A stretch of 55,539 nt of DNA from Paracoccaceae bacterium. GTDB taxonomy: Bacteria > Pseudomonadota > Alphaproteobacteria > Rhodobacterales > Rhodobacteraceae. The position numbers were made by a program, and so were the translations under genes. The notes beneath the pieces are model-generated. The model had not been told where the DNA came from, did not search any database, and saw nothing but the letters and a program-made list of their open reading frames with translations. Location: assembly GCA_947371955.1 (NCBI GenBank), contig CANBRQ010000009.1, positions 1-55,539 on the forward strand, in the 5' to 3' direction. Of this stretch, positions 33,610 through 45,860 are shown one piece after another (within the stretch, counting starts at the first letter, position 1; every line of letters starts with the position of its first letter).

Positions 33610-34464
33610 CTACAGATCGGCGGTGAAGCTGGAGGAGATCCACTTGCGGGCCGAGATCACGGCATGGGGTGTGCCATCCGGAGCCACCCAACGTTGAATG
33701 CGGGCATAGGTCTGAACTTTGGCCCCGCCAAAGGCTGCCGTGATCTGCAGACCGAAGACAGTGCTGTGCAAGGACAGGCCGGCTGGCAGGATCAGGCCCA
33801 TCTCGCTCAATACATCCGGCGTGATCATCCCGATCTTGCGCCGCGCCAGCAGGTCTGCGGCCTGTTCGGGGTTTTGCAGCATGGCCCGTACCAGAATGTC
33901 AGAGGCGGTGTTGAGGTTGACCGTGCTGGACAACGGCGGCGCACAGGTGACAAGGGGGGCGAGGATCGCCACCTCCGCCTCGGACAGACCGGCGCGTGAT
34001 AGAAGATCGCTGATCTGCTGCAGCGGGCGCCCGCCGCGCAAAGCGGCAGAGATACGAACGCCAGCCTCGGGCGGCAATCCGGCAACTGCCACAATCAGGC
34101 GCAGGTAGTTGCGACCGGTCGGGCTGCCCTCCAGCAGGGTGTTGAGGTTGAACCGCGCGGATTCGTCCCAGACTGATATCTGTACCGCACCCAGATTCGG
34201 ACCGGACGGCGCTATCTGCGACCACGGTTCTGCCGGGCCATCGGCATCGGGCGCAGCGGACAGATCGCTTTTCAGGGCAGACAGGACCAGAACCTCGGCC
34301 GAGGTGGCCAGGCTTTGTGCCTGCACCTGATCCAGATCGCGCGCCGTGGAAAGGGTGGCCTGTTCTGATCGTGTGGTCATTGCGACGATGACCGTCACGC
34401 ACAGCGCCATGACCGACAGGATGGTGACCAGAACCACCCCCTTTTCTGGATGCCGCCGGGTCAT
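33610..34464 (-). CDS. gspK: Type II secretion minor pseudopilin GspK
   Basis: The 284-residue protein has a class III leader ending at Gly9 (RRHPEKG) before VVLVTILSVMALCVTVIVAM. It lacks the Glu at mature position 5, the known distinguishing feature of GspK, which caps the pseudopilus tip with GspI and GspJ. The large alpha domain follows, with VNLNTASDILVRAML-type helix-hairpin sequence. It is the last gene of the leftward gsp arm, coupled to gspJ by an ATGA overlap. A prepilin peptidase encoded 10 kb away in the same locus could process it. Confidence 0.88.
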   Translation of the reverse strand: MTRRHPEKGVVLVTILSVMALCVTVIVAMTTRSEQATLSTARDLDQVQAQSLATSAEVLVLSALKSDLSAAPDADGPAEPWSQIAPSGPNLGAVQISVWDESARFNLNTLLEGSPTGRNYLRLIVAVAGLPPEAGVRISAALRGGRPLQQISDLLSRAGLSEAEVAILAPLVTCAPPLSSTVNLNTASDILVRAMLQNPEQAADLLARRKIGMITPDVLSEMGLILPAGLSLHSTVFGLQITAAFGGAKVQTYARIQRWVAPDGTPHAVISARKWISSSFTADL

Positions 34465-35012
34465 GGCCCGGCCTCATGCGGTGGCTCGGATGGCAGGACA
34501 AAGACCCCGCGAAGGGTTTCCGAACTTGCGAGTTGCAGCGTCAGGTCAAGACCAACCACCGGCGGCGTGCTGGCGGAGGCTTCGGCCGGTGTCTGTTGCA
34601 GGATGGGTTGCCAAGACACCGTTTTCACATCTTCCAGCAGCAATTGCCAACCGGGCTGACTGCCGTCCGGTCCGATCTGGCGCTGCAATCCGGTGGCGTC
34701 CAGACGGTAGTGGACCGAAAGCCCCTCGGCCCCCGGTCCTGAGGGCGTGCGCAATGCGCCCCGCCGCAGCAGGGCAAGACCGCCCTTTTCAACCGTCACG
34801 CTGCCCGGCAGGGCCTGCATCGTATCCAGCGCGATCACCCGCATCATCCGCTGCAAATCGGCCAACCGCGCCAGCCGCGCTTCGGTCAGGCGCTGGCTGC
34901 GCAGGGTCTGATCCAGCAGCGCGAAAGAGGCGGTGCCGATCACGGCAAAGACGGCAAGCGCGACCAGCACCTCCACCAAGGTCATCCCGGCCTCTGGATG
35001 GCGTAGTGTCAT
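34461..35012 (-). CDS. gspJ: Type II secretion minor pseudopilin GspJ
   Basis: From ATG 35012 the product has 183 residues. The prepilin leader is MTLRHPEAG, cut after Gly9, giving MTLVEVLVALAVFAVIGTAS with the conserved Glu5. The rest (LRSQRLTEARLARLADLQRM, then beta-rich sequence with WQLLLEDVKTVSWQ) fits GspJ of the tip complex. A longer upstream frame in this register, to 35573, overlaps gspF and is rejected. The gene overlaps gspF upstream and gspK downstream by four bases each. Confidence 0.88.
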   Translation of the reverse strand: MTLRHPEAGMTLVEVLVALAVFAVIGTASFALLDQTLRSQRLTEARLARLADLQRMMRVIALDTMQALPGSVTVEKGGLALLRRGALRTPSGPGAEGLSVHYRLDATGLQRQIGPDGSQPGWQLLLEDVKTVSWQPILQQTPAEASASTPPVVGLDLTLQLASSETLRGVFVLPSEPPHEAGP

Positions 35013-36199
35013 GGTGCGACCAGCGAATTCATCGAGACGATGGGCAGCAGGATCGCCAGCACGATCGTCATCACCAGCCCGCCCATCACCAGCAGGATCC
35101 CCGGCTCGACCAAAGCGACCACAGCCTTGACCCAGGCATCGAGATCGCGCTGCTGGTCGGTGGCGGCATGGTGAAGGGCATCGCCCAGCCTGCCGTTCGC
35201 CTCGCCACTGGCGACCATCGCCACCAGCATCGCGGGAAAGCACGCCGCGCCTTCCATCGCGCTCCGCAGCGTCGATCCTTGGCGGACTTTCTGCGTCAGG
35301 GCCGTGATCGACGCGCGGATGTGAAGGTTGGGCGTGGCATCGCCTGCCGCCTCCAGTGCCGTGACCAGAGGCACGCCGCTTTGCACCAAAGTGGCAAGGG
35401 TCGAGGCGAACTGTGCCGCATTCATCCTTTGAACGAAGCGGCGGGTCAGCCAGCCCGAAGCCAGCAGAAGGTGCAGCTTCTGCCGATTGCCAAGATTGCG
35501 CTGCCACAGAGTCAGCCCGAAGATCATGGCCACAAGCACCGCTGCCGCCAGCGGACCACTGCCGCGCACCCATCCGCTGACGCCGATCAGCGCACGGGTC
35601 AGAAAAGGCAAGGCCGCGCCGCGCGCGGTGAAGACCTTGACGATGTCGGGCACGACAAACACCATCAGCATGGTGACAATGCCCAGACTGACCAGCCCCA
35701 GCAATGCCGGATACAGCAGCGCCAGCATCACGGTCTGCCGGTTGCGCGTCCGTGTCTCGACAAAATCGGCCAGATGGCCCAGCACCGCATCCAGCCGCCC
35801 GGCCTGCTCTCCGGCGCGAACCGAGGCGCGGAAGTAGTCTGAAAAGCTTGCCGGACGATCGCTCAAGGCCTCGGTCAGGCTACGGCCTTCGGTCAGCGCG
35901 GTGCGGATGGCCAGAAGGACGGCGGCCACCTTGGGCGGCTGACCGCCGGCAATTGTCTTCAGCGCCTCGTCGATGCGCAAGCCAGAGCCGATCAGGGTCG
36001 AAAGCTGCCGTGTCACCAGCGTCAGGCTGCGCAGGGGCAGGGCGGTGCTTGATGTGCGACTGCGCTCGGCTTGCAATGACACAAGGATGAGGCCGCGGTC
36101 GCGGATCGTCAGCCGGGCGGTGGCGGCGGTGGCGGCCTCGGTCACGCCGCTTTGCATCTTGCCGCGCGGGTCGGTGGCCTGAAAGCGGAAGCCCGGCAT
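35009..36199 (-). CDS. gspF: Type II secretion inner-membrane platform protein GspF
   Basis: The 396-residue protein begins MPGFRFQATDPRGKMQSGVT and contains two GspF cytoplasmic domains (about 60-185 and 265-385), with membrane helices near 160-190, 210-235 and 370-390. The ends of the domains show the family pattern AVLGHLADFVETRTRNRQTV and DALHHAATDQQRDLDAWVKA. It is the platform on which GspE acts to extend the pseudopilus. It follows gspE by two bases and overlaps gspJ by four. Confidence 0.9.
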   Translation of the reverse strand: MPGFRFQATDPRGKMQSGVTEAATAATARLTIRDRGLILVSLQAERSRTSSTALPLRSLTLVTRQLSTLIGSGLRIDEALKTIAGGQPPKVAAVLLAIRTALTEGRSLTEALSDRPASFSDYFRASVRAGEQAGRLDAVLGHLADFVETRTRNRQTVMLALLYPALLGLVSLGIVTMLMVFVVPDIVKVFTARGAALPFLTRALIGVSGWVRGSGPLAAAVLVAMIFGLTLWQRNLGNRQKLHLLLASGWLTRRFVQRMNAAQFASTLATLVQSGVPLVTALEAAGDATPNLHIRASITALTQKVRQGSTLRSAMEGAACFPAMLVAMVASGEANGRLGDALHHAATDQQRDLDAWVKAVVALVEPGILLVMGGLVMTIVLAILLPIVSMNSLVAP

Positions 36200-36201
36200 T
36201 A

Positions 36202-37680
36202 TCAGACCTCCTGCGCCACGCGGGCGATTTCTTCCACGGTGGTCTGCCCCGCCTCCACCAGCCGCAGACCGTCTTGCAGCAGCGAGGGGCCCTGCGCCCG
36301 CGCTTCCGCCTGCAAATCGGCCTCCGAGGCACCCTCGTGGATCAGGCTTTGCATCTTGCGGCTGATCTGGACCACCTCATACACCCCCGTGCGGCCGGAA
36401 TAGCCGTGACCCTGACAGTCAGCGCAGCCGGTGGCGCGGTGGATGGGATGACCGGGAGTGATCAGCCCTCCCATCAGGCGGCAGTCTGCTTCGGTGGCAT
36501 GGTCCGGCGTGCGGCACGTGGGGCAAAGCCGACGTACCAACCGCTGCGCCACGACGCCGGCCAGCATTGGCGCCAGAAGGAAGCGTTCCACGCCCATGTC
36601 GACCAGCCGGGACACCGCCCCGATCGCCGTGTTGGTGTGCAGGGTCGACAAGACAAAATGCCCGGTCATCGCCGCTTCTACCGCGACTTGCGCGGTTTCC
36701 CGGTCCCGGATTTCGCCGACCATGATCACATCCGGGTCTTGCCGCAGGATCGCCCGCAGCCCACGGGCGAAGGTCAGTTCGGTGCGCGGGTTCACCTGAG
36801 TCTGGCCGATGCCTTCCAGCGCATATTCGATTGGGTCCTCGACCGTGATGATATTCACCCCCGGCTGGTTCAGCGCATCGAGTGCTGCATAAAGCGACGT
36901 TGTTTTACCCGACCCGGTCGGCCCCGTCACCAGCAGCATCCCGTCCGGGCGCTTCAGCAGGCTGGCGAAGGTTTCCGCATCCCTTGGGCTCATCCCCAGA
37001 CGGTCCAGCCCGAACTGGGCCGAGCCCCTGTCCAGAAGCCGCATCGCCACCCGTTCGCCATGCTGGGCGGGCAGGGTGGAGACGCGGACGTCAACCTCAT
37101 GCCCGCCCACCCGCAGCGAGACCCGGCCATCCTGCGGCAGGCGACGCTCGGCGATATCCAGTTGCGCCATGATCTTGATGCGGCTGACCAGATGCTGGGC
37201 CAAGGCACGACGGGGTGACAGAACCTCGCGCAGTTCGCCATCAATGCGGAACCGCACGACAAGGCGCTTTTCCTGTGTCTCGATGTGGATATCCGACGCG
37301 CGCTCGCGGATCGCCTCCAGCAGCAGGGCGTTGATCAGGCGGATCACCGGGCTGTCATCTGATTGGTCTAGCAGGTCATCGACGACGGCTGCGCTGTCGG
37401 CCAAAGCAGCCAGATCGCCATCCGCACTCGCCGCCGCCGCCGCATCCGAGGAGGTGTCGCGATAGGCGCGGGCCAGTCGTTCGGCGAAGGCATCTGGGTC
37501 GAGAATTTGCAGCCGGGCGCGGCCTTCGGACAGGCGCAGGACTTCGACAAGGGCAAGCGGTGGGGTCTGCCAGTGGTACAGGCAAAGCGGGGCGTCCGGC
37601 CCGGCCTCAAGGATTACGCCGCGATCCCGGGCGAAGGCATAAGGCAGCAGTGGGGTGGCTGGGCGCTGCACTTCGGTCAT
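36202..37680 (-). CDS. gspE: Type II secretion ATPase GspE
   Basis: From ATG 37680 the protein has 492 residues, a normal length. Walker A is GPTGSGKT (253-260), the Asp box is ITVEDPIEY (278-286), Walker B is PDVIMVGEIRD (316-326), and the His box is STLHTN. The zinc tetracysteine is Cys386, Cys389, Cys419 and Cys422, as in GspE and PilB. It powers pseudopilus assembly from the cytoplasm, docked to GspL. An upstream frame to 37794 overlaps gspM and is not used. The start overlaps the gspM stop by four bases. Confidence 0.94.
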   Translation of the reverse strand: MTEVQRPATPLLPYAFARDRGVILEAGPDAPLCLYHWQTPPLALVEVLRLSEGRARLQILDPDAFAERLARAYRDTSSDAAAAASADGDLAALADSAAVVDDLLDQSDDSPVIRLINALLLEAIRERASDIHIETQEKRLVVRFRIDGELREVLSPRRALAQHLVSRIKIMAQLDIAERRLPQDGRVSLRVGGHEVDVRVSTLPAQHGERVAMRLLDRGSAQFGLDRLGMSPRDAETFASLLKRPDGMLLVTGPTGSGKTTSLYAALDALNQPGVNIITVEDPIEYALEGIGQTQVNPRTELTFARGLRAILRQDPDVIMVGEIRDRETAQVAVEAAMTGHFVLSTLHTNTAIGAVSRLVDMGVERFLLAPMLAGVVAQRLVRRLCPTCRTPDHATEADCRLMGGLITPGHPIHRATGCADCQGHGYSGRTGVYEVVQISRKMQSLIHEGASEADLQAEARAQGPSLLQDGLRLVEAGQTTVEEIARVAQEV

Positions 37681-38156
37681 GGGGTTGCCCTTTGCACGGA
37701 AAGGTCGGCAGACACGATCCCCGGAGCATCCGTCCGCCTTATCGTGGCCGAGGTGAAGACAAGGCCGTTGTCCCGGTCCAGCCCGTCGATCCACAGAATC
37801 AGCGTCTCGAACGATGCGTCCTGCAGGGTCAGGGTCGCGGCACCGTCTTTCGGGGTGTCCAGCCGCAGGATGGTCAGGTTCTGTGCGGCGGTGGTCTGGG
37901 TCAGGATGGCGGCCATTGGGCGCGGGTCCGCTTGTGTCGCCACGGACCGCGGCATCTGTGCCAAAGCGGCGAGCGTGCGTTCATAGCGCTGCAGCCGGGT
38001 CATCTGCGCCTTCTGCTGCGCCAGAAGCGGCTGCCAGATGCCAAACACGAGAACCGCCCCGCCCACGGCCATAGCCCCTGCCGCAAGAAGCAGCCGCTCG
38101 CGCCCGGTCAGAAGGCCAAGCCTTTCCTTGTGCCCCCAGTGTGCCACGCCCCTCAT
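37677..38156 (-). CDS. gspM: Type II secretion inner-membrane protein GspM
   Basis: The 159-residue protein has a cytoplasmic head containing LTGRERLLLAAGAMAVGGAV leading into a single membrane helix, then a coiled region (AQQKAQMTRLQRYERTLAAL) and a ferredoxin-like periplasmic domain. This is the standard GspM plan, and the -L-M-E- neighbourhood supports it. It pairs with GspL to anchor the ATPase. Overlaps of four bases on both sides indicate coupled translation. Confidence 0.85.
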   Translation of the reverse strand: MRGVAHWGHKERLGLLTGRERLLLAAGAMAVGGAVLVFGIWQPLLAQQKAQMTRLQRYERTLAALAQMPRSVATQADPRPMAAILTQTTAAQNLTILRLDTPKDGAATLTLQDASFETLILWIDGLDRDNGLVFTSATIRRTDAPGIVSADLSVQRATP

Positions 38157-39205
38157 CCCGCACCCCCGTTCGAGATGACCACGGCAGCCCGCGCCTGTCC
38201 CTGCCCGTTGGTCAGGGCACCCAAAGTCGCCGCAAGGCCCGCCTTGGTCAGCAAAGTTGCCGTATCTTGCAAGGGCGCAAGGTCGCTTGCCAGCAGCGTC
38301 ATGGTCAACTTTCCGCCATGTTGGTCAAAGGTCAGGTCCTGCAAGGCGACAAGACCTGTCTGATCCCGCATGGCATCCAAAGCCGTGCTGAGCAGGGGCA
38401 GAAAGGTCGCGCCGCCGTCAGTCTTAGTCCCCTTCAACACAGCCGCCGCCGCCGCATCGACTGACGTGCCTACGGCGACACCACGCGCCGCCAAAGCCTG
38501 ACGCAGCTTTGTCTCGGAGGCGTCGGCCTGACGGGTCAGGTCTTGAGTTTCGACAGCCAGCAGGCCCAGATGCACGCTTAGACCCAGAGCAAGAACGGCG
38601 GCCAAAGCCAGAAGCTTGCCCGGGCTGCGCCATTCGGGCACGCGGTCACCCGCCAGATCGAACCCGGCCAACGCCGCTTCGGGTTGCCAGCTCCAGGCCT
38701 CGGTTCGGCGTTGGGACAGCGGCACGTCGTCAGGCGGCGTCCCTCGCATCCAATCAAGTCCGGGTTCCCCCGCAAGTTGCCAAATGGCCCGAAAGCCCGG
38801 TGCGTCAGTGGAAAAGCCGGTTCCATCGGGCAGCCGTGCCAGAAGACGACCCTCGCGCTCTGCCACGCACCAGTGGTCAGCATCCGGGCGCGGAAGCAGC
38901 AGCACATCGGGCATCAGATCGGCTTGACCACTGCGCAGCGCCAGCACGGCAGACAGCGCCTCATGTGTCATCACCACGGCCAGATAGGTGTCTCGATCCG
39001 CCTCCAGCCTTGGGCCGAGGATCACCCGCACCGCCTCCAGCGGCTGGGACAGGAACGGCTCTGCCGCGAACTGTGCCGCCGCCCTTCGTTGCGCGCCTGC
39101 CAAGGGGGGCAGGTCCAGCCGCAGGATCAGCATCCGGTCCGAGGCCACCGGCACCACAGCGCGCGCCTTGCCGGACCGGAACAGCCGCCGCGCTTTGCCC
39201 TTCAT
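38153..39205 (-). CDS. gspL: Type II secretion protein GspL
   Basis: From ATG 39205 (AGGGGG upstream) the protein has 350 residues. The cytoplasmic actin-like part is recognisable but divergent (VMTHEALSAVLALRSGQADL; PDVLLLPRPDADHWCVAERE). A membrane helix follows near residues 195-215 (LLALAAVLALGLSVHLGLLA), then a periplasmic ferredoxin-like domain. GspL links the GspE ATPase to the envelope. In-frame ATG 39229 would add eight residues. It is the first gene of the leftward arm, divergent from gspG across a 109-base region that holds a perfect palindrome. Confidence 0.83.
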   Translation of the reverse strand: MKGKARRLFRSGKARAVVPVASDRMLILRLDLPPLAGAQRRAAAQFAAEPFLSQPLEAVRVILGPRLEADRDTYLAVVMTHEALSAVLALRSGQADLMPDVLLLPRPDADHWCVAEREGRLLARLPDGTGFSTDAPGFRAIWQLAGEPGLDWMRGTPPDDVPLSQRRTEAWSWQPEAALAGFDLAGDRVPEWRSPGKLLALAAVLALGLSVHLGLLAVETQDLTRQADASETKLRQALAARGVAVGTSVDAAAAAVLKGTKTDGGATFLPLLSTALDAMRDQTGLVALQDLTFDQHGGKLTMTLLASDLAPLQDTATLLTKAGLAATLGALTNGQGQARAAVVISNGGAG

Positions 39206-39238
39206 CGCCGCCCCCTGACTTTTTTGCATCCAAAGCAC

Positions 39239-39274
39239 ATACGGACTGAAACTCCGGAAGGTTTCAGTCCGTAT
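39239..39274. promoter_or_regulatory. 36-bp palindrome between divergent gspL and gspG
   Basis: ATACGGACTGAAAC and GTTTCAGTCCGTAT are perfect 14-bp inverted arms around an 8-base spacer (tccggaag). It sits midway in the only gap separating the two arms of the secretion locus. No T tract follows on either side, so an operator for a dimeric or tetrameric regulator is more likely than a terminator; a role in mRNA structure is possible. Confidence 0.65.
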
Positions 39275-39314
39275 CCCCGTCAACGCAAATATTCTGATCC
39301 GGGGGAGGTTGCAG

Positions 39315-39779
39315 ATGATCCTGCGCAAAAGCTGCAAAAGGCAAAGACGGCAGAGGGATGCCGGGGTGACGCTGATCGAGATGATGGTGGTGCTGGTGAT
39401 CATCGCGATCATTGCGGCACTGATCGTGCCGAATGTGATCGGCAGGCCGGATGAGGCGCGGGTGACGGTGGCCAAGTCTGACATCCGCACGCTCGCCGCT
39501 TCGCTGGAACTGTACCGGCTGGACGCCCGCCGCTACCCGACAACCGAGCAGGGGCTGGATGCGCTGGTCCATCGCCCGGTGCTGGACCCGGTGCCTGCGA
39601 CATGGGCCGAAGGCGGCTATCTGGCGACGCTGCCGCAGGACCCCTGGGGCAATCCCTATCTCTATGCCGCCCCGGGGCAGTCTGCGCCGTTCGATCTGAT
39701 CTCGTTCGGTGCAGACGGCGTGGCGGGTGGCGAGGGCGTTGATGCCGATCTGACCAACGCAGCCACCGGGACCAGTTGA
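39315..39779 (+). CDS. gspG: Type II secretion major pseudopilin GspG
   Basis: ATG 39315 follows GGGGGAGG by six bases. The 154-residue prepilin has a basic leader cut after Gly17, giving VTLIEMMVVLVIIAIIAALI with Glu at mature position 5. The mature N-terminal residue is Val where Phe or Met is usual. The C-terminal loop GADGVAGGEGVDAD (132-145) is the conserved calcium-binding site of GspG. Motifs RYPTTEQGLDALV and LPQDPWGNPYLY are typical. GspG polymerises into the periplasmic pseudopilus. It heads the rightward arm. Confidence 0.94.
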   Translation: MILRKSCKRQRRQRDAGVTLIEMMVVLVIIAIIAALIVPNVIGRPDEARVTVAKSDIRTLAASLELYRLDARRYPTTEQGLDALVHRPVLDPVPATWAEGGYLATLPQDPWGNPYLYAAPGQSAPFDLISFGADGVAGGEGVDADLTNAATGTS

Positions 39780-39780
39780 G

Positions 39781-40224
39781 ATGGGCCATCGTCCGACCCA
39801 CCGGGACTCCGAGGCTGGCGTGACGCTGGTGGAAATTCTTGTGGTTCTGTCGATCATTGCGATCACCACCGGGGCCGCGATGCTGCGCCTTGGCTTCGGC
39901 CGCAGCGAGGAGGATTTCACCGCTTTGGCGGCGGCGATGGCGATGACGGTCACCGCCGCTTCGGATGATGCGCTGCAGACAGGGCTGGACCGCGTGCTGC
40001 AGCTTGGGCCAGAGGGCTACCGGATCGTGGCCGCCGACGCCGTGACCGCGCCTTCGTGGCACAGCATTCCCGATCTAACCTTCCGGCCCGCTGAAGGCAG
40101 CGCCGCCCTGCGCCTGTCAGCCGATGCCGCCTCGACCCCTTTCGTGTTGCGGTTTGAGGGCGCAAAACAGAGCCTGTTCCTGCGGTTTGATGGGTTGAAA
40201 GCCCGCGTCGAGGGTGCGCCATGA
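39781..40224 (+). CDS. gspH: Type II secretion minor pseudopilin GspH
   Basis: The 147-residue protein has a prepilin leader ending at Gly13 (RPTHRDSEAG), then VTLVEILVVLSIIAITTGAA with Glu at mature position 5, and a beta-rich C-terminal domain (FVLRFEGAKQSLFLRFDG). Position after gspG and before gspI supports GspH. It starts one base after the gspG stop and overlaps gspI by four bases. Confidence 0.86.
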   Translation: MGHRPTHRDSEAGVTLVEILVVLSIIAITTGAAMLRLGFGRSEEDFTALAAAMAMTVTAASDDALQTGLDRVLQLGPEGYRIVAADAVTAPSWHSIPDLTFRPAEGSAALRLSADAASTPFVLRFEGAKQSLFLRFDGLKARVEGAP

Positions 40225-40592
40225 CCCAAAACCTGCGCCAAACCGATGCCGGATTCACCCTGATCGAAGCGCTTATCGCCTTGGCAATCCTGTCGATCAC
40301 GGCCGTCAGCTTCCTGCGCTCGACCGAATCGAACATCGCCCGCGTGACTGCGCTGGAGGCACGCTCGGCCGCTACACGGGCGGCACAGAACAGGCTGGCG
40401 GAACGGGCGCTGGGGCTACCAGCGCCGGAGGGCCCCGTGCACATGCTAGGCTGGGATTTCGCCGTGGCGGTTCAAGAGGTGCCCGAGCCGGACCCCGCAC
40501 TGGTTCAGGTCAAAGTCACGGCATCGACGCCGGACGGCAGCGCGCGGGTGACGGTTTCAGGATTGGTGATGACCACGGCGGGTCAGCCATGA
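40221..40592 (+). CDS. gspI: Type II secretion minor pseudopilin GspI
   Basis: The 123-residue protein has the leader MTQNLRQTDAG cut after Gly11, then FTLIEALIALAILSITAVSF with Glu5, followed by the GspI-like ATRAAQNRLAERALGLPAPE and a short beta domain containing VKVTASTPDGSARVTVS. It nucleates the tip complex with GspJ and GspK, which are encoded on the opposite arm. It overlaps gspH and gspC by four bases each. Confidence 0.88.
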   Translation: MTQNLRQTDAGFTLIEALIALAILSITAVSFLRSTESNIARVTALEARSAATRAAQNRLAERALGLPAPEGPVHMLGWDFAVAVQEVPEPDPALVQVKVTASTPDGSARVTVSGLVMTTAGQP

Positions 40593-41212
40593 CTCGCAAC
40601 CTTGGGCTGCCCAAACTGGGCTGGGTCTGGATCGTCGTGCTGGCTGAGGCGGCTTTGCTTGCCATCGACCTTCAGACCCCTGCCGAACCGGCACGGGCTG
40701 CACCGCCTGTCATGGCAACTCCCGCCTCGGCGGTCTCGGGGCGGGTCAGCCTGCAGCCGGTTCTGGACTTTCACCCCTTCGGTGCCGTGCCGGTGGTGGC
40801 AGAACCGCCGCCCGCAGCGCCAGTTGAGCCCGAGCCGATGGTTCAACCACGCGGCCTTGCATTGCAGGGCGTCTTGCTGCCGGGGTCGGGCCCGGCCCGG
40901 GCACTGGTCAGCATGGATGACGGTCCGGCGCTGGCTTACGTCAAAGGTGATCCTCTGCCCGGAGGCGGCATATTGGCGGACATCGCCGCCGATCAGATCT
41001 GGATCGACAGGGACGGGGAAAAGCAGGCTCTGGGCTTCGTCGCTCCTCCCCCAGCAGCGCAGGTGGCGGAAGATCCCGTTCCCACGGAAGCCGAAGCTGA
41101 TCTTGCCGAAGACCCCCCAGCCAAGCCGGTTCTGAAAGCCAAATCGCTGCCGCAACCTGACCTGCGGCATCTGATCCCCGACCTGACCAAAACCGCAGCC
41201 GTGCAACCCTGA
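40589..41212 (+). CDS. gspC: GspC-like inner-membrane protein (homology region, no PDZ)
   Basis: From ATG 40589 the product has 207 residues: a membrane helix (WVWIVVLAEAALLAID, about 12-27), a proline-rich linker, then a GspC homology region (LALQGVLLPGSGPARALVSM through YVKGDPLPGGGILADIAADQ, about 92-150). It ends in a charged tail with no PDZ or coiled-coil domain. GspC normally joins the platform to the secretin GspD through this region, so its presence implies that a secretin exists elsewhere. A longer in-frame extension from 40214 overlaps gspI and is rejected. Confidence 0.8.
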   Translation: MTRNLGLPKLGWVWIVVLAEAALLAIDLQTPAEPARAAPPVMATPASAVSGRVSLQPVLDFHPFGAVPVVAEPPPAAPVEPEPMVQPRGLALQGVLLPGSGPARALVSMDDGPALAYVKGDPLPGGGILADIAADQIWIDRDGEKQALGFVAPPPAAQVAEDPVPTEAEADLAEDPPAKPVLKAKSLPQPDLRHLIPDLTKTAAVQP

Positions 41213-41285
41213 CCGCCTTTTTCGCACCCTTTGAAACTTCCCCGTCTGACGCTGCGTAACGACATCATTAGCGACAGGAGATGTT

Positions 41286-42521
41286 ATGCCGGGATTACAA
41301 GCACAGACGGCGCGGCTGCCGCGCCTGGGGCAGTTCGGGGCCTTGGCCGGAGCGATGGCCCTTGGGGCGGCTGTCATCTTTGCAGCCACTCTGGCCGGGC
41401 GAGGCCCCTCGACCCAGGGAGCGGATATCCCGGACGGTACTGTGGTGGCCCGGCTGTCCTTGGGTCCTGCGACACAATTTGCAGGTCTGGCTCCCTTGCT
41501 GACGGCGACTCGTGCTCGCCCGGACGATCTCGAGGCCGCCATGGCTGCGGCGGAGGCGTTGATCGACGCGGGGCGGAAAGCCGGAAACTCTCGGCTGGTC
41601 GGGGCGGCGCTGGGGGTTTTGCGGCCCTTCCTTGCCACCGTGCCAAGCCCGCAGACCCTGCGCCTTGCGGCAGAGGCTCGGCAGTATCAGCATGACTTCA
41701 ACGGCGCGCTGACGCTTCTGGATCAGGCTATCATGCTGGACCCCGGGCTTGCGGATGCCATTCTGATGCGGTCGACGATCCATCTGGTGCAGGGCGATCT
41801 GAGCGCCGCCGAGTATGACTGCGCACGACTGCGCGCCTCCCGGCCGGAGATCGCGTTTCTGTGCCAGTCCACCGCGCTGACCATGACGGCCACGGCACCA
41901 CAAGTCTACACCCGACTGGAAGGCCTGACCACGACCCCGGGGCTTCTGTCGCCCGGATTGATGACATGGGCGCAAAGCCTGATGGGAGAGATTGCCCTGC
42001 TGCAAGGCAAGCCCGATCTGGCCGAGCAATGCCTGAAAGCGGTTCTGGCTGCCGACCCGGATGCCTTGCGCGAAAGGATGATGCTCGCCGACCTGTGGCT
42101 GAGCCAGAACCGCGCCGCCGAGGTGACCGAGTTGTTGCAACCTGCTCCGCCGGTCGATGGCGTTCTGATCCGGCGGGCTTTGGCAGCTCCGGCACAGGGC
42201 GACCAGACGGCTGCCGCGCAGGCTGAAGCGGAAGTTGCGGCACGGGTCAAACAGAATCTCGCCTTGGGGCTGAACGCCCATGCCCGCGAAGATGCCATGT
42301 ATTTTCTGCTGCTGGCCAAAGCCCCGGGTCAGGCGCTGGAACGGGCGAAGGTCAACTGGGCGCTACAGCACGAATTCGACGACGCGCGTCTGCTGATCTC
42401 CGTCGCCGATGCGGCGGGCAAACCGGCCGAGGCTTTGCCCGTCCTGGCCTGGATGAAGGCGCAGAACATCGTCGTGCCAAGCCTGACGATCCCTGATTCT
42501 GTCCGGGCGGTTGCGCCATGA
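41286..42521 (+). CDS. Membrane-anchored TPR-repeat protein of the gsp/DUF4331 locus
   Basis: AGGAG precedes ATG 41286 by four bases. The 411-residue protein has one N-terminal membrane helix (GALAGAMALGAAVIFAATLA, about 18-37), then a periplasmic helical-repeat region with TPR-like units such as YQHDFNGALTLLDQAIMLDP and LLQGKPDLAEQCLKAVLAAD. No catalytic domain is seen. It lies 73 bases after gspC and overlaps the HupE-like gene by four bases, so it belongs with the rightward arm. A scaffold or client-handling role for the secretion system is an inference. Confidence 0.75.
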   Translation: MPGLQAQTARLPRLGQFGALAGAMALGAAVIFAATLAGRGPSTQGADIPDGTVVARLSLGPATQFAGLAPLLTATRARPDDLEAAMAAAEALIDAGRKAGNSRLVGAALGVLRPFLATVPSPQTLRLAAEARQYQHDFNGALTLLDQAIMLDPGLADAILMRSTIHLVQGDLSAAEYDCARLRASRPEIAFLCQSTALTMTATAPQVYTRLEGLTTTPGLLSPGLMTWAQSLMGEIALLQGKPDLAEQCLKAVLAADPDALRERMMLADLWLSQNRAAEVTELLQPAPPVDGVLIRRALAAPAQGDQTAAAQAEAEVAARVKQNLALGLNAHAREDAMYFLLLAKAPGQALERAKVNWALQHEFDDARLLISVADAAGKPAEALPVLAWMKAQNIVVPSLTIPDSVRAVAP

Positions 42522-43606
42522 TCCGGTATCTTCTGACCCTCTGCGCCAGCCTGCTGCTGCTTCAGACGGCGCAGGCCCATGAAACCACAAAGTCCTATCT
42601 GACGCTTGCCGTCGAGGGCCACGAGATCACCGCCGCCCTGCGCCTGGCCTTTCGGGACATGGAAGTAGCGGTCTGGATGGATGAGAACCTTGACGGCCAG
42701 ATCACCTGGGGCGAGGCGAAGCGGCGCTTGCCGGCGGTGGAAAGTTATGTGCTGTCCAATGTCAGCATGGTGACGACAGAGGGCGCCTGTGCGCTGGTCC
42801 AAAGTGGAGCGTCGACCTCAACCGACGCCGGGGTCGATTATCTCGATCTGGCTTTCTCCGGAACCTGCCCGGCCAAAGTCTCGGCAGAGCCGGTGGTGAC
42901 GCTGCATTCGACCCTGTTCACCGACATCGACCCGGATCACCGCATGTTTCTGACCGCCATTGTGCAAGGCATCCGGTCAACCGAGTTGATCAGCCGCAGT
43001 GCGCCAAGCTTGACGCTTGACGGCTCCAGCGCGGGGGCTTTGGCCACACTGGCGTCCTACTTCCGGGCGGGAATTGACCATCTGGCGGGCGGGCCGGACC
43101 ACATCGTCTTTCTGCTGGCGCTGATGCTGCCCCTCGTCTGTTCCAGCCGCAGCGCGAAATCGGCTGCCGGGGGGATTCTGGCCGCGGTGACCGGGTTCAC
43201 CTTGGCCCATGCTCTGACGCTGACGGCCGCAGCCACACGGGTCTTCAGCCCGAACCCCGCGGTGATCGAGGCGTTGATTGCCTTGTCGATCATTCTGACG
43301 GCGGTGGATAACGTCCGCCCATTCCTGCGCTTTCCGCGCGCCGCTGTTGCCGCCTTCTTCGGCACGATCCACGGCTTCGGCTTCGCCTCGGCACTGGGTG
43401 CGCTTAATCTGGGCGGCACCTCGCTGGCTGTGGCACTTCTGGGCTTCAACCTTGGGATCGAGGCGGCTCAGGTCGTACTGGTGCTTCTGACGATGCCCAT
43501 TCTTTACCTGATCGGGGCGGGTCGGATTGTTCTGTGGTCAGGCAGTGCCGCGGCCGGGGCGGTTGGCCTGTTCTGGCTTCTGCAACGCCTGCCTTTGATT
43601 TTCTGA
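42518..43606 (+). CDS. HupE/UreJ-like membrane protein with N-terminal EF-hand
   Basis: The 362-residue protein has a signal-like start (LTLCASLLLLQTAQA, then HETTKSYLTL), a periplasmic domain of about 150 residues and six or seven membrane helices. It carries the HupE/UreJ_2 landmarks AGIDHLAGGPDHIVFLLALM and FGTIHGFGFASALGALNLGG. The loop DENLDGQITWGE at residues 55-66 is a textbook EF-hand (acidic or amide at 1, 3, 5; Gly6, Ile8, Glu12). Some HupE relatives move nickel or cobalt; here no hydrogenase or urease is present. The conserved His-Asp residues in the membrane may bind metal. It overlaps the TPR gene by four bases. Confidence 0.82.
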   Translation: MIRYLLTLCASLLLLQTAQAHETTKSYLTLAVEGHEITAALRLAFRDMEVAVWMDENLDGQITWGEAKRRLPAVESYVLSNVSMVTTEGACALVQSGASTSTDAGVDYLDLAFSGTCPAKVSAEPVVTLHSTLFTDIDPDHRMFLTAIVQGIRSTELISRSAPSLTLDGSSAGALATLASYFRAGIDHLAGGPDHIVFLLALMLPLVCSSRSAKSAAGGILAAVTGFTLAHALTLTAAATRVFSPNPAVIEALIALSIILTAVDNVRPFLRFPRAAVAAFFGTIHGFGFASALGALNLGGTSLAVALLGFNLGIEAAQVVLVLLTMPILYLIGAGRIVLWSGSAAAGAVGLFWLLQRLPLIF

Positions 43607-43610
43607 TCGG

Positions 43611-44069
43611 TCACGAAAGAAACAAAAGATGGAGCCAGCTTAAAATGAATCCACTCGCTAACCACGGACCAAATGCCAGACCCTCCTGCCGCGCCTTCAA
43701 GCGCACGACCGCAAATGCCAACCCCATGAAAGTTGCAAAGAGCAGCACCTCTGGCAGATAAGACCAGCCCAGCCATGCCCCTGCGGCGGCATATAATTTC
43801 GCATCGCCCAAACCAAGCGCCTCATGGCCACGCAGCCTGAACCAGACTTCGCCAATCCCCCAAAAGACCAGAAACCCCAAGCCTGTACCGATTAGACGGT
43901 CGGCCAGGGCAACCTCTGTCGCATAGCCAGACAGCACCAAACCCACCCCGATCAAGGGCAGGCTTGCTAAATCCGGTATTCGCTTCTCTCGCCAATCGAC
44001 ACGGCAAATCCACTGACCCATCGCCAATAGAAATCCGGTCAGACTTATTTGCACTATTATTTGACCCAT
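43611..44069 (-). CDS. Short A24 prepilin peptidase (no methyltransferase domain)
   Basis: From ATG 44069 the product has 152 residues and about five membrane helices. The two aspartates of this protease family are visible: Asp25 in DWREKRIP and Asp89 in GLGDAKLY. The N-terminal cytoplasmic N-methyltransferase domain of GspO/PilD, with its four cysteines, is missing, as in TadV/CpaA-type enzymes. No Tad pilus gene is present, so it most likely processes the GspG-K pseudopilins of this locus. A longer start at 44141 adds 24 non-membrane residues. It is convergent with the HupE-like gene and divergent from the DUF4331 gene. Confidence 0.82.
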   Translation of the reverse strand: MGQIIVQISLTGFLLAMGQWICRVDWREKRIPDLASLPLIGVGLVLSGYATEVALADRLIGTGLGFLVFWGIGEVWFRLRGHEALGLGDAKLYAAAGAWLGWSYLPEVLLFATFMGLAFAVVRLKARQEGLAFGPWLASGFILSWLHLLFLS

Positions 44070-44143
44070 CGTGAAACTTCGGCTCTCTGGCGTGCGTAGG
44101 TTCTTTGTCAGGTAATAAAGGCGAACCCACCGTCCGCCCATTT

Positions 44144-44167
44144 CACCTGATCATATTTCAACAGGTG
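44144..44167. promoter_or_regulatory. Inverted repeat upstream of DUF4331 gene
   Basis: CACCTG at 44144-44149 and CAGGTG at 44162-44167, 12 bases apart, lie 25 to 48 bases before the DUF4331 start and within the divergent prepilin-peptidase promoter region. Spacing fits a small operator. The arms do not resemble the gspL-gspG palindrome. Confidence 0.3.
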
Positions 44168-44191
44168 CGGATACGCACGATAGGAGGAAGA

Positions 44192-45814
44192 ATGACCGTT
44201 TCAAAGACATCTCTCGTGATGGCGGCGCTGGCGGGAACCGTTGCGTTCCTGCCGCAGATTACGCTGGCATCCAGCCACCGGGAAGCCCCGGCCATCGCGG
44301 GCATGCCCCGGGTTGACGCGACCGATTTCTACATGTTCCGCAGCTATGAACCGAACCGTCAAGCCTATACCACGTTCATCGCCAACTACATTCCGGTACA
44401 GGCGCCCTATGGCGGGCCGAACTACTTCACGCTGGATCACGATGCGCTGTATGACATCAAGATCGACAGCAATGGCGACGCGGTGGAGGATTATACCTTC
44501 CGTTTCAAATTCTCGACTGCGCTGTCGGGCGGTACGGGGATCAAGCTGCCGATCGGCGACAAGAACGTCGCTATTCCGTTGCGCAACGCCGGGTCCATCG
44601 CCAACCCGAATGACGCCAATATCAACGAGACGGAAAGCTTCCGCGTCTCGCTGATCACGGGCACCGGGCATTCTGCCACCTCCGCGCGCCTGGCGTTGGC
44701 CAGCGATCCGACGGTCGTCAACTTCGCCAAGCCGATCGACAACATCGGGTCGAAGTCGATCCCGGATTATCCCGCCTATGCCAACAAGCACATCTACACC
44801 GTCACGATCCCGGGCTGCTCGACACCGGGCCGTGTCTTCGTGGGGCAGCGGGCTGAGGCTTTTGCCGTCAACCTCGGCTCGGTCTTCGACCTTGTGAACC
44901 TTGTGCCGATTGAGGGCGACTCGGCGCCGGGCGCTGGCGATGGCAAAGGCTTCCCGGGCGGTATCACCCAATCGCGCAACAATGATGATCTGGTGGGCAA
45001 GGCCAACGTGACCTCGCTGGCGCTGGAAGTGCCGACGACCTGCCTTGTCGGCACCGGCAATGGCGTGATCGGCGGCTGGACTACGGCAAGCCTTCCGACC
45101 AAGCGTGTCCTTTCGGCAAACCCGACCTACAATGCCACAGATTCGACCAGCGGCGGTTATACCCAGGTGTCCCGCCTGTCCAACCCTCTGGTCAACGAAG
45201 TGGTCATTGGCCTGCCCGACAAGGACAAGTTCAACGAATCCCGTCCGAAGGATGATGGCCAGTTCGCAACCTATGTCACCAACCCCAGCCTGCCCGCGCT
45301 TTTGAACCTGCTGTTCAAGGACGCGGTCAATGCGACGCTGGGCACCAGCATACCCAACCTCGCCCCCAGCAACCTGCCCCGCACCGATCTTGTAACGGCC
45401 TTCCTGACCGGCTTCCCGGGCCTGAACCAGCAAAAGACCGTGACCGCGTCCGAGATGCTGCGCCTGAACACCGCTGTTCCGGCAACGCCGCGCGGCAAGC
45501 AAAAGACCTTTGGTGTCGTCGCAGAGGATCTTGCCGGCTTCCCGAACGGCCGTCGTCCCGGCGATGATACTGTCGACATTGCTCTGCGCGTGGTGATGGG
45601 TGCCTTGTGCCACCCGGTGCCGCTGGGTGCCGAACTCGGCGTTCCCGGCGCGGTGGAGGATCAGCCGTCAGATCTGATCAACCTCGGCCTCTGCCAGCCG
45701 TCTGATGCGCCAGTTGGCAATGTGCCCTTCACCGACGGCGCCCCGATCTCGGCGAAGGAGTTGCAGAACAGCTTCCCCTATCTGAAAGCGCCGCTGCCGG
45801 GTGCCCACAGCTAA
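44192..45814 (+). CDS. Exported DUF4331-family protein, candidate type II secretion client
   Basis: AGGAGGAAG directly precedes ATG 44192. The 540-residue product has a Sec signal (SLVMAALAGTVAFLPQITLA, cut near Ala26) followed by the DUF4331 hallmark SSHREAPAIAGMPRVDATDF. A possible calcium loop, IDSNGDAVEDY, occurs at 91-101. Further family sequence includes TDFYMFRSYEPN and IALRVVMGALCH. Function of the family is unknown. The mature protein is rich in Asn, Asp and Gly and has only a few cysteines, suiting an extracellular protein. Adjacent gsp genes, TPR protein and HupE-like protein suggest it is secreted by this type II system; I infer that from context only. Confidence 0.85.
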   Translation: MTVSKTSLVMAALAGTVAFLPQITLASSHREAPAIAGMPRVDATDFYMFRSYEPNRQAYTTFIANYIPVQAPYGGPNYFTLDHDALYDIKIDSNGDAVEDYTFRFKFSTALSGGTGIKLPIGDKNVAIPLRNAGSIANPNDANINETESFRVSLITGTGHSATSARLALASDPTVVNFAKPIDNIGSKSIPDYPAYANKHIYTVTIPGCSTPGRVFVGQRAEAFAVNLGSVFDLVNLVPIEGDSAPGAGDGKGFPGGITQSRNNDDLVGKANVTSLALEVPTTCLVGTGNGVIGGWTTASLPTKRVLSANPTYNATDSTSGGYTQVSRLSNPLVNEVVIGLPDKDKFNESRPKDDGQFATYVTNPSLPALLNLLFKDAVNATLGTSIPNLAPSNLPRTDLVTAFLTGFPGLNQQKTVTASEMLRLNTAVPATPRGKQKTFGVVAEDLAGFPNGRRPGDDTVDIALRVVMGALCHPVPLGAELGVPGAVEDQPSDLINLGLCQPSDAPVGNVPFTDGAPISAKELQNSFPYLKAPLPGAHS

Positions 45815-45833
45815 GACGCATACTTTATAAAGG

Positions 45834-45860
45834 CGGCTGCAGGGAAACCTGCTGCCGTTT
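45834..45860 (+). terminator. Intrinsic terminator of DUF4331 transcript
   Basis: CGGCtGCAGG and CCTGCtGCCG form a nine-pair stem with one T-T mismatch around a GAAA tetraloop, followed by TTT, 20 bases after the DUF4331 stop codon. Confidence 0.65.

What the first reader, a model, noticed from the sequence alone, without database searches (positions are those of the whole stretch)
33610..45860. Split type II secretion locus linked to a DUF4331 protein, TPR protein and HupE-like protein, with no secretin
Ten gsp genes (L M E F J K leftward; G H I C rightward) flank a single gap, and the rightward arm runs straight into a TPR protein and a HupE/UreJ-like protein. A private prepilin peptidase and a large signal-bearing DUF4331 protein follow. 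GspC is present, but GspD is not in the window. The simplest reading is a dedicated secretion machine for the DUF4331 protein, with TPR and HupE-like proteins as accessory factors. I know DUF4331, TPR and HupE genes as frequent neighbours in other bacteria (from memory), but a fixed link to a compact Gsp set would be new.
Basis: partly seen in the sequence, partly recalled or inferred. Interest (0 to 1): 0.78.

Follow-up and report, generated by a model that had tools for sequence, protein, structure and literature searches.

The report
Secretion machine missing its outer gate
A bacterial protein-export machine that travels with one large protein of unknown function has, in this lineage, cleanly lost its outer-membrane gate yet is still being kept, which suggests that it may borrow the gate of a second export machine in the same cell.

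Summary
In detail: ten gsp genes, a TPR gene, a HupE/UreJ gene, a prepilin peptidase and a DUF4331 gene, with no secretin. Comparison changes its meaning. In 394 genomes of the window's family, GspL of this type II subtype (above 300 bits) occurs in 11, and strong DUF4331 (above 190 bits) in the same 11 only. In G343 the two lie about 550 kb apart. The TPR/HupE link to gsp is not general: 37 of 80 DUF4331 loci have TPR and HupE without gspK/J.
All 18 fully covered relatives carry gspD after gspC and an LppC-like lipoprotein gene between J and F (14 also a GspN-like gene). The window and its relative L038 lack all three, and their GspC ends before its PDZ domain. No remnant was found. Yet the remaining genes are open, with dN/dS 0.06-0.36 between the two species. 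The genome's other secretins are a pilus-type one and the lipobox-bearing GspD of a second, resident type II system.
Best reading: a DUF4331-dedicated type II platform that lost its outer-membrane half and probably uses the resident secretin. Client and secretin sharing are inferred, not shown.

The parts
33610..34464 (-). gspK minor pseudopilin
   Evidence: NCBIfam T2SS_GspK 3e-34, 119 bits, below cut-off 130
34461..35012 (-). gspJ minor pseudopilin; overlaps gspF by 4 bases where relatives hold an LppC-like lipoprotein gene and usually a GspN-like gene
   Evidence: Pfam N_methyl 5.8e-7, T2SSJ 1.4e-4 below cut-off; relatives' layout
35009..36199 (-). gspF inner-membrane platform protein
   Evidence: TIGR02120 6e-109, below cut-off
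36202..37677 (-). gspE assembly ATPase
   Evidence: TIGR02533 2.5e-189, 630.0 bits against a cut-off of 630.25
37677..38156 (-). gspM platform protein
   Evidence: Pfam T2SSM 1.2e-26
38153..39205 (-). gspL platform protein
   Evidence: TIGR01709 1.1e-25, above cut-off, on 38153-39229
39206..39311 (.). divergent intergenic gap; holds a perfect 14-base inverted repeat at 39239-39274
   Evidence: the repeat finder; no such perfect repeat in the stretches of L038, L148, L149, L151 and L155 given to that call
39312..39779 (+). gspG major pseudopilin
   Evidence: TIGR01710 2.2e-50
39781..40224 (+). gspH minor pseudopilin
   Evidence: TIGR01708 2.9e-14, below cut-off
40221..40592 (+). gspI minor pseudopilin
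   Evidence: TIGR01707 4.3e-13, above cut-off
40589..41212 (+). gspC, cut short: T2SSC domain present, C-terminal PDZ domain absent
   Evidence: Pfam T2SSC 7.5e-11 and no PDZ; three relatives scanned have T2SSC plus PDZ; sequences and alignment
41213..41285 (.). short gap between gspC and TPR where relative L149 carries gspD; no gspD remnant
41286..42521 (+). TPR protein with an N-terminal hydrophobic stretch (by eye)
   Evidence: Pfam TPR_19 6e-8
42518..43606 (+). HupE/UreJ_2 membrane protein with an N-terminal domain
   Evidence: Pfam HupE_UreJ_2 2.3e-38
43611..44141 (-). small A24 prepilin peptidase, divergent from the DUF4331 gene
   Evidence: Pfam Peptidase_A24 8.6e-19
44192..45814 (+). 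DUF4331 protein with a Sec-signal-like N terminus (by eye); proposed client of the machine
   Evidence: Pfam DUF4331 2.3e-141

Best explanation
This is the inner-membrane and pseudopilus half of a type II secretion subtype (called T2SS-A here) that in the window's family comes with one DUF4331 protein, most likely its dedicated exported client. After DUF4331 reaches the periplasm (its N terminus looks like a Sec signal), GspE would drive GspF to build a GspG pseudopilus, processed by the neighbouring prepilin peptidase, that pushes the folded protein outward. In this lineage two deletions removed the outer-membrane side: one took the PDZ end of GspC and all of GspD, the other the LppC-like lipoprotein and the GspN-like protein between J and F. 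The rest is still under purifying selection, so it probably now docks on the secretin of the resident second type II system (contig C93), whose GspD carries a lipobox-like stretch and so may reach the outer membrane without a pilotin. Shown: gene content, co-occurrence, the losses in two species, the presence of the second system, low dN/dS. Inferred: DUF4331 as client, secretin sharing, the two-deletion history.
For: Co-occurrence: 11 of 394 and 11 of 394 genomes, the same 11; hypergeometric P about 2e-18 with the four weak DUF4331 hits counted in. G343 keeps both although they lie about 550 kb apart on one contig. GspD next to gspC and the LppC-like gene between J and F in 18 of 18 covered relatives. 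Window and L038 lack both and have PDZ-less GspC. Only the C93-type GspD and a pilus-type secretin in both genomes. No stop codons in the aligned parts of the 14 genes, dN/dS 0.058-0.357 at dS 0.60-1.46. C93 GspD is 94% identical between the two genomes, dN/dS 0.073, and 82% identical in G077 of the same genus, which has neither T2SS-A nor DUF4331. T2SS and DUF4331 trees both put window+L038 with G343 and G397.
Against: No interaction or secretion data. The co-occurrence test ignores shared ancestry; transfer or inheritance as one block would give much of it. No sequence sign that the C93 secretin fits this GspC; the GspC candidate of C93 could not be matched to GspC (hhalign probability 0.3%). 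Both genomes are MAGs, 92% and 82% complete. The DUF4331 stem is also long (0.32), so the long T2SS stem (0.55) need not reflect the loss. DUF4331 exists in many bacteria without a linked gsp cluster, and in five genomes without a strong GspD (G412; G425, G436, G438, G467), so it does not need a T2SS everywhere.
Confidence: 0.5

Rival explanations
1. The cognate gspD (with the LppC-like and GspN-like genes) has moved elsewhere in the genome and sits in unassembled sequence; the machine is a normal, self-contained T2SS that is merely split.
For: MAGs 92% and 82% complete; in G343 part of the system is already split off by about 550 kb.
Against: Both genomes lack it; the LppC-like gene is missing too (only a 107-108-bit paralogue, also found in three other genomes); GspC is cut at its PDZ domain in both, which relocation of gspD alone would not explain.
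Confidence: 0.2
2. The machine is a decaying remnant of a horizontally acquired T2SS; DUF4331, TPR and HupE work without it.
For: Three components and one domain lost; long stem branch (0.55) for window+L038 in the T2SS tree against 0.16 for the sister stem; GspC is the least conserved gene (56% identity).
Against: No stop codons in the aligned parts of the 14 genes and dN/dS well below 1 at dS near 0.8; gene overlaps remain intact.
Confidence: 0.17
3. The platform no longer serves outer-membrane export: it works without a secretin as a periplasmic pseudopilus machine acting on DUF4331 or on the HupE/TPR proteins.
For: Loss of the outer-membrane-facing parts while platform, pseudopilins and prepilin peptidase are kept.
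Against: A usable secretin is in the genome. I made no search aimed at precedents for a secretin-free machine.
Confidence: 0.12

Closest known systems
Type II secretion system (Gsp)
   Same: Ten gsp genes C E F G H I J K L M plus an A24 prepilin peptidase
   Different: No GspD of its own, no PDZ on GspC, no LppC-like or GspN-like gene; the relatives' clusters have them (18, 18, 18 and 14 of 18; PDZ by profile in the three scanned)
Pseudomonas aeruginosa XphA/XqhA with Xcp (a GspCD pair outside the xcp locus forming a functional hybrid)
   Same: Exchange of secretin subunits between type II machines is known there (PMC6567927, passage seen)
   Different: There an extra GspCD pair serves a complete machine; here a machine has lost GspD and part of GspC and is left to depend on another
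HxcQ-type liposecretin
   Same: C93 GspD has a lipobox-like LQAC near its N terminus; HxcQ is described as self-piloted (PMC2996285, passage seen)
   Different: No homology test against HxcQ was made
Gammaproteobacterial DUF4331-TPR-HupE loci
   Same: Same three protein families in a row (37 of 80 loci apart from L038; mostly gammaproteobacterial by record title)
   Different: No gspK or gspJ within about 10 kb; many have ECF sigma-like and RskA-like genes and a small lipoprotein-like gene instead (Pfam on L086 for sigma and anti-sigma only)

Membership tests
Type II secretion system, self-contained | Assembly ATPase GspE and platform GspF/L/M/C | tested here: met
   E and F below the curated NCBIfam cut-offs
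Type II secretion system, self-contained | Major and minor pseudopilins GspG-K with a prepilin peptidase | tested here: met
   H, J and K below the curated cut-offs
Type II secretion system, self-contained | Outer-membrane secretin GspD in the same cluster | tested here: not met
   so it is filed as a T2SS-derived platform, not as a complete T2SS
Type II secretion system, self-contained | A GspD anywhere in the genome | tested here: met
   C93 GspD, belonging to another T2SS; 309-313 bits, below the TIGR02517 cut-off
Type II secretion system, self-contained | Moves folded proteins across the outer membrane | not testable with these tools
   needs secretion assays
DUF4331-linked subtype T2SS-A (defined here) | Gene order K J ... 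F E M L diverging from G H I C, with a prepilin peptidase-DUF4331 divergent pair | tested here: met
   in the window the pair lies at the other end of the cluster
DUF4331-linked subtype T2SS-A (defined here) | gspD after gspC and LppC-like gene between J and F | tested here: not met
   18 of 18 covered relatives have both; window and L038 have neither
DUF4331 family (PF14224) | Profile match over the whole domain | tested here: met
   2.3e-141, profile 1-421 of 421

The most novel reading that the evidence does not exclude
A type II machine that has shed its outer-membrane half (GspD, its lipoprotein helper, GspN-like protein, GspC PDZ) and is kept by selection working without any secretin, as a periplasmic pseudopilus engine for the DUF4331 protein.
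Probability: 0.12. Interest if true: 0.8.

Novelty: new variant of a known kind. Interest (0 to 1): 0.56.

Why it matters
Type II machines are generally taken to be matched sets (general knowledge, no call). A lineage that deletes its own secretin and the GspC PDZ while keeping the other parts under selection is a natural experiment on which parts must be cognate. It points to GspD, the LppC-like lipoprotein, the GspN-like protein and the GspC PDZ domain as one functional outer-membrane module. It also gives DUF4331, for which the library searched holds no paper by that name, a first testable role as the client of a dedicated secretion machine.

Tried and rejected
Rejected: TPR and HupE as fixed accessory factors of the gsp set. 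Near T2SS-A both were seen only in the window, L038 and L149; L040 and L059 have HupE alone, and L052 has TPR with a HupE of the other Pfam family, PF04955. Stretches beyond the clusters were not covered equally, so these are minimum counts. Rejected: GspD simply out of view to the side of the window.

Led nowhere: fold of DUF4331 (pLDDT 79.9, pTM 0.85). Foldseek gave nothing at E<=0.001; VIA-align gave Z up to 5.5 to antibody beta-sandwiches, within the range the tool calls common. No relative in the PDB by sequence at E<=1. The C93 GspC candidate (L004:1003-1719) has no Pfam hit and could not be tied to GspC. PF01203 finds no GspN in the own genome, but of three relatives' GspN-like genes scanned it hit one, below its cut-off, so that test says little. 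The perfect palindrome between gspL and gspG was not found in L038 and its half-site is not enriched in the window (17 matches against 13 expected).

Papers: 'DUF4331' returned no paper in the library and none together with 'type II secretion'. HupE with type II secretion gave 11 papers; only the listing was seen., aimed at systems with two T2SSs or a missing or hybrid GspD, on T2SS in roseobacters, showed no matching case in their listings; only the listings and the openings of abstracts were seen. PMC6567927, PMC2996285 and PMC6532946: matching passages only. All others: listing only.

Rows dropped and limits: weak hits G349 (69 bits) and G200 (32 bits) are not counted as T2SS-A; weak DUF4331 hits G022, G210, G298, G341 (33-51 bits) are not counted as strong. 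Searches scored at most 5 and 3 first-look candidates per genome, so a weak copy could be missed; the genus search scored them all. L154 is another T2SS of genome G400 and is left out of the 18. L052 has gspD after gspC but was not scored with the LppC-like model and has no room for that gene between J and F, so that gene may not be universal. L049 and L054 are cut by contig ends; L069 shows K and J but no F, E, M or L in the following 8 kb; all three were left out of the 18. Of the 25 loci with neither set, six have TPR alone and some are cut by contig ends. One search was given 50 of the 55 loci not covered. dN/dS comes from my own Nei-Gojobori script, and dS near 1 is close to saturation. 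Alignment A1 is faulty for L013 and L018 (wrong strand) and was not used; A2 replaces it. One search reported loci as missing from the Python box because of how I looked for file names; they were there.

Full report
What is there. No secretin gene lies in the window. The genome (4.85 Mb, 353 contigs, 92% complete) has two secretins: one on C67 that I read as the CpaC of a Flp/Tad pilus, and one on C93 that is a GspD (TIGR02517 3.7e-93, 313 bits, cut-off 351). C93 carries a second type II locus with GspE, F, G and M, weak matches for I, J and H, K- and L-like genes placed mainly by position, and its own prepilin peptidase.

The link to DUF4331. A scan of 394 genomes of the window's family (Rhodobacteraceae, judged from the titles of matching records) with a GspL profile of this subtype gives 11 genomes above 300 bits. 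DUF4331 gives 11 above 190 bits, and they are the same 11. Four more have weak DUF4331 hits of 33-51 bits, and two have weak GspL hits. In G343 the prepilin peptidase-DUF4331 pair lies about 550 kb from the gsp cluster on the same contig, so the pairing outlasts loss of adjacency there. The hypergeometric P is about 2e-18, uncorrected for shared ancestry; inheritance or transfer as one block could account for much of it.

DUF4331 elsewhere. A collection scan kept 80 loci of at least 580 that encode a relative. Annotated with profiles built from the window genes, 17 have gspK+J beside DUF4331. L038 has gsp genes from J on, with K beyond its edge. 38 have both TPR and HupE, that is L038 and 37 others; none of the 37 has gspK or gspJ, though L055 has two GspE-like frames. 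25 have neither set, six of them with TPR alone. The TPR-HupE form is mostly gammaproteobacterial by record title. A GspD is present at E<=1e-60 in 46 of 50 further DUF4331 genomes. In one search, 30 of 31 had a GspD hit of at least 290 bits; the other (G412) had only a 133-bit pilus-type secretin. So DUF4331 with TPR/HupE is a separate association, and the linked gsp cluster is a feature of some alphaproteobacteria.

What was lost here. I re-fetched 18 relatives' clusters across their full length (annotated). All 18 have gspD directly after gspC and an LppC-like lipoprotein gene between J and F; 14 have a GspN-like gene there too. A further relative, L052, has gspD but no room for the LppC-like gene. 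The name LppC-like rests on a weak Pfam match (E 7.5e-4) and GspN-like on one (E 7.1e-4 in one of three scanned). Relative L149 (Pseudorhodobacter sp. PARRP1) has C D TPR HupE in a row. The window and L038 (Rhodobacteraceae bacterium Jr-25may17-125, DUF4331 90% identical) have C TPR HupE, and J directly before F. A tblastn with L149's D, LppC-like and GspN-like proteins finds no remnant in the window or L038, only chance-level hits of the GspN-like protein. GspC of both stops before the PDZ domain: Pfam finds T2SSC only, whereas the three relatives scanned have T2SSC plus PDZ, and all 18 relatives' sequences run on to the same C-terminal motif by eye. One deletion from inside gspC to just before TPR and another between J and F would explain it all (inference).

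Is it still used? Between the window and L038, the aligned parts of all 14 genes are open, with dN/dS from 0.058 (G) to 0.357 (H) at dS 0.60-1.46. K was compared over 38 residues only; over 282 residues it is 68% identical in L220. Four flanking genes give 0.030-0.090. L038's left flank matches the window's too, with about 4 kb extra. Trees of GspE+F+G+L and of DUF4331 both group window+L038 with G343 and G397 (support 1.00 and 0.98), though the order inside that group differs. The stem is long in both (0.55 and 0.32), so the burst of change is not peculiar to the gsp genes.

The resident system. C93-type GspD is 82% identical to one in G077 of the same genus, a genome without T2SS-A or DUF4331 hits. 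In the genus, 2 of 16 genomes have T2SS-A: the window's, and one whose contig number and match position correspond to L038's genome, 82% complete. So T2SS-A looks acquired and the C93 system resident. C93 GspD starts with a lipobox-like stretch, as expected of a secretin that needs no pilotin, whereas the four cognate GspDs printed show no such stretch by eye. This makes the C93 secretin a plausible replacement, but nothing here shows contact between the two systems.

Verdict. The reading 'dedicated machine for DUF4331' is supported by co-occurrence, short of a secretion test. The reading 'TPR and HupE are part of it' is not. The new point is a maintained type II platform that has lost its secretin, an LppC-like lipoprotein, a GspN-like protein and the GspC PDZ domain in two species that share a second, resident T2SS. 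A precedent for mixing secretin subunits between type II machines is XphA/XqhA with Xcp in Pseudomonas (PMC6567927, passage). The mended counts in this version (37 loci in place of 38, L052, the DUF4331 stem) did not call for a change of the odds.

Noticed in passing
window 39239-39274: Perfect 14-base inverted repeat (8-base spacer) in the divergent gspL-gspG gap; possible operator or hairpin, not found in the same gap of L038.
   Followed up: partly
L086:8449-9713 and similar places in L038-L117: Many DUF4331 loci carry an ECF sigma-like gene (48 of 80) and an RskA-like anti-sigma gene (41 of 80) within 3 kb, suggesting stress-regulated expression (Pfam on L086 only).
   Followed up: partly
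L149:4528-5658 and the same place in the other T2SS-A clusters: An LppC-like lipoprotein gene sits inside the gsp operon of 18 of 18 covered relatives; G397 and G343 also have a second, weaker copy elsewhere, the only kind seen in G000, G394 and G077. A possible pilotin or cell-wall helper for the secretin.
   Followed up: partly
window 42518-43606: The HupE-like protein has an N-terminal domain with an EF-hand-like DENLDGQITWGE stretch, also in L149 as DENLDGSITWGE; motif name recalled, not tested.
   Followed up: no
L004:13808-16111 (contig C93): A sulfatase with RTX calcium-binding repeats lies about 3.6 kb from gspD of the second T2SS, a possible secreted enzyme.
   Followed up: no
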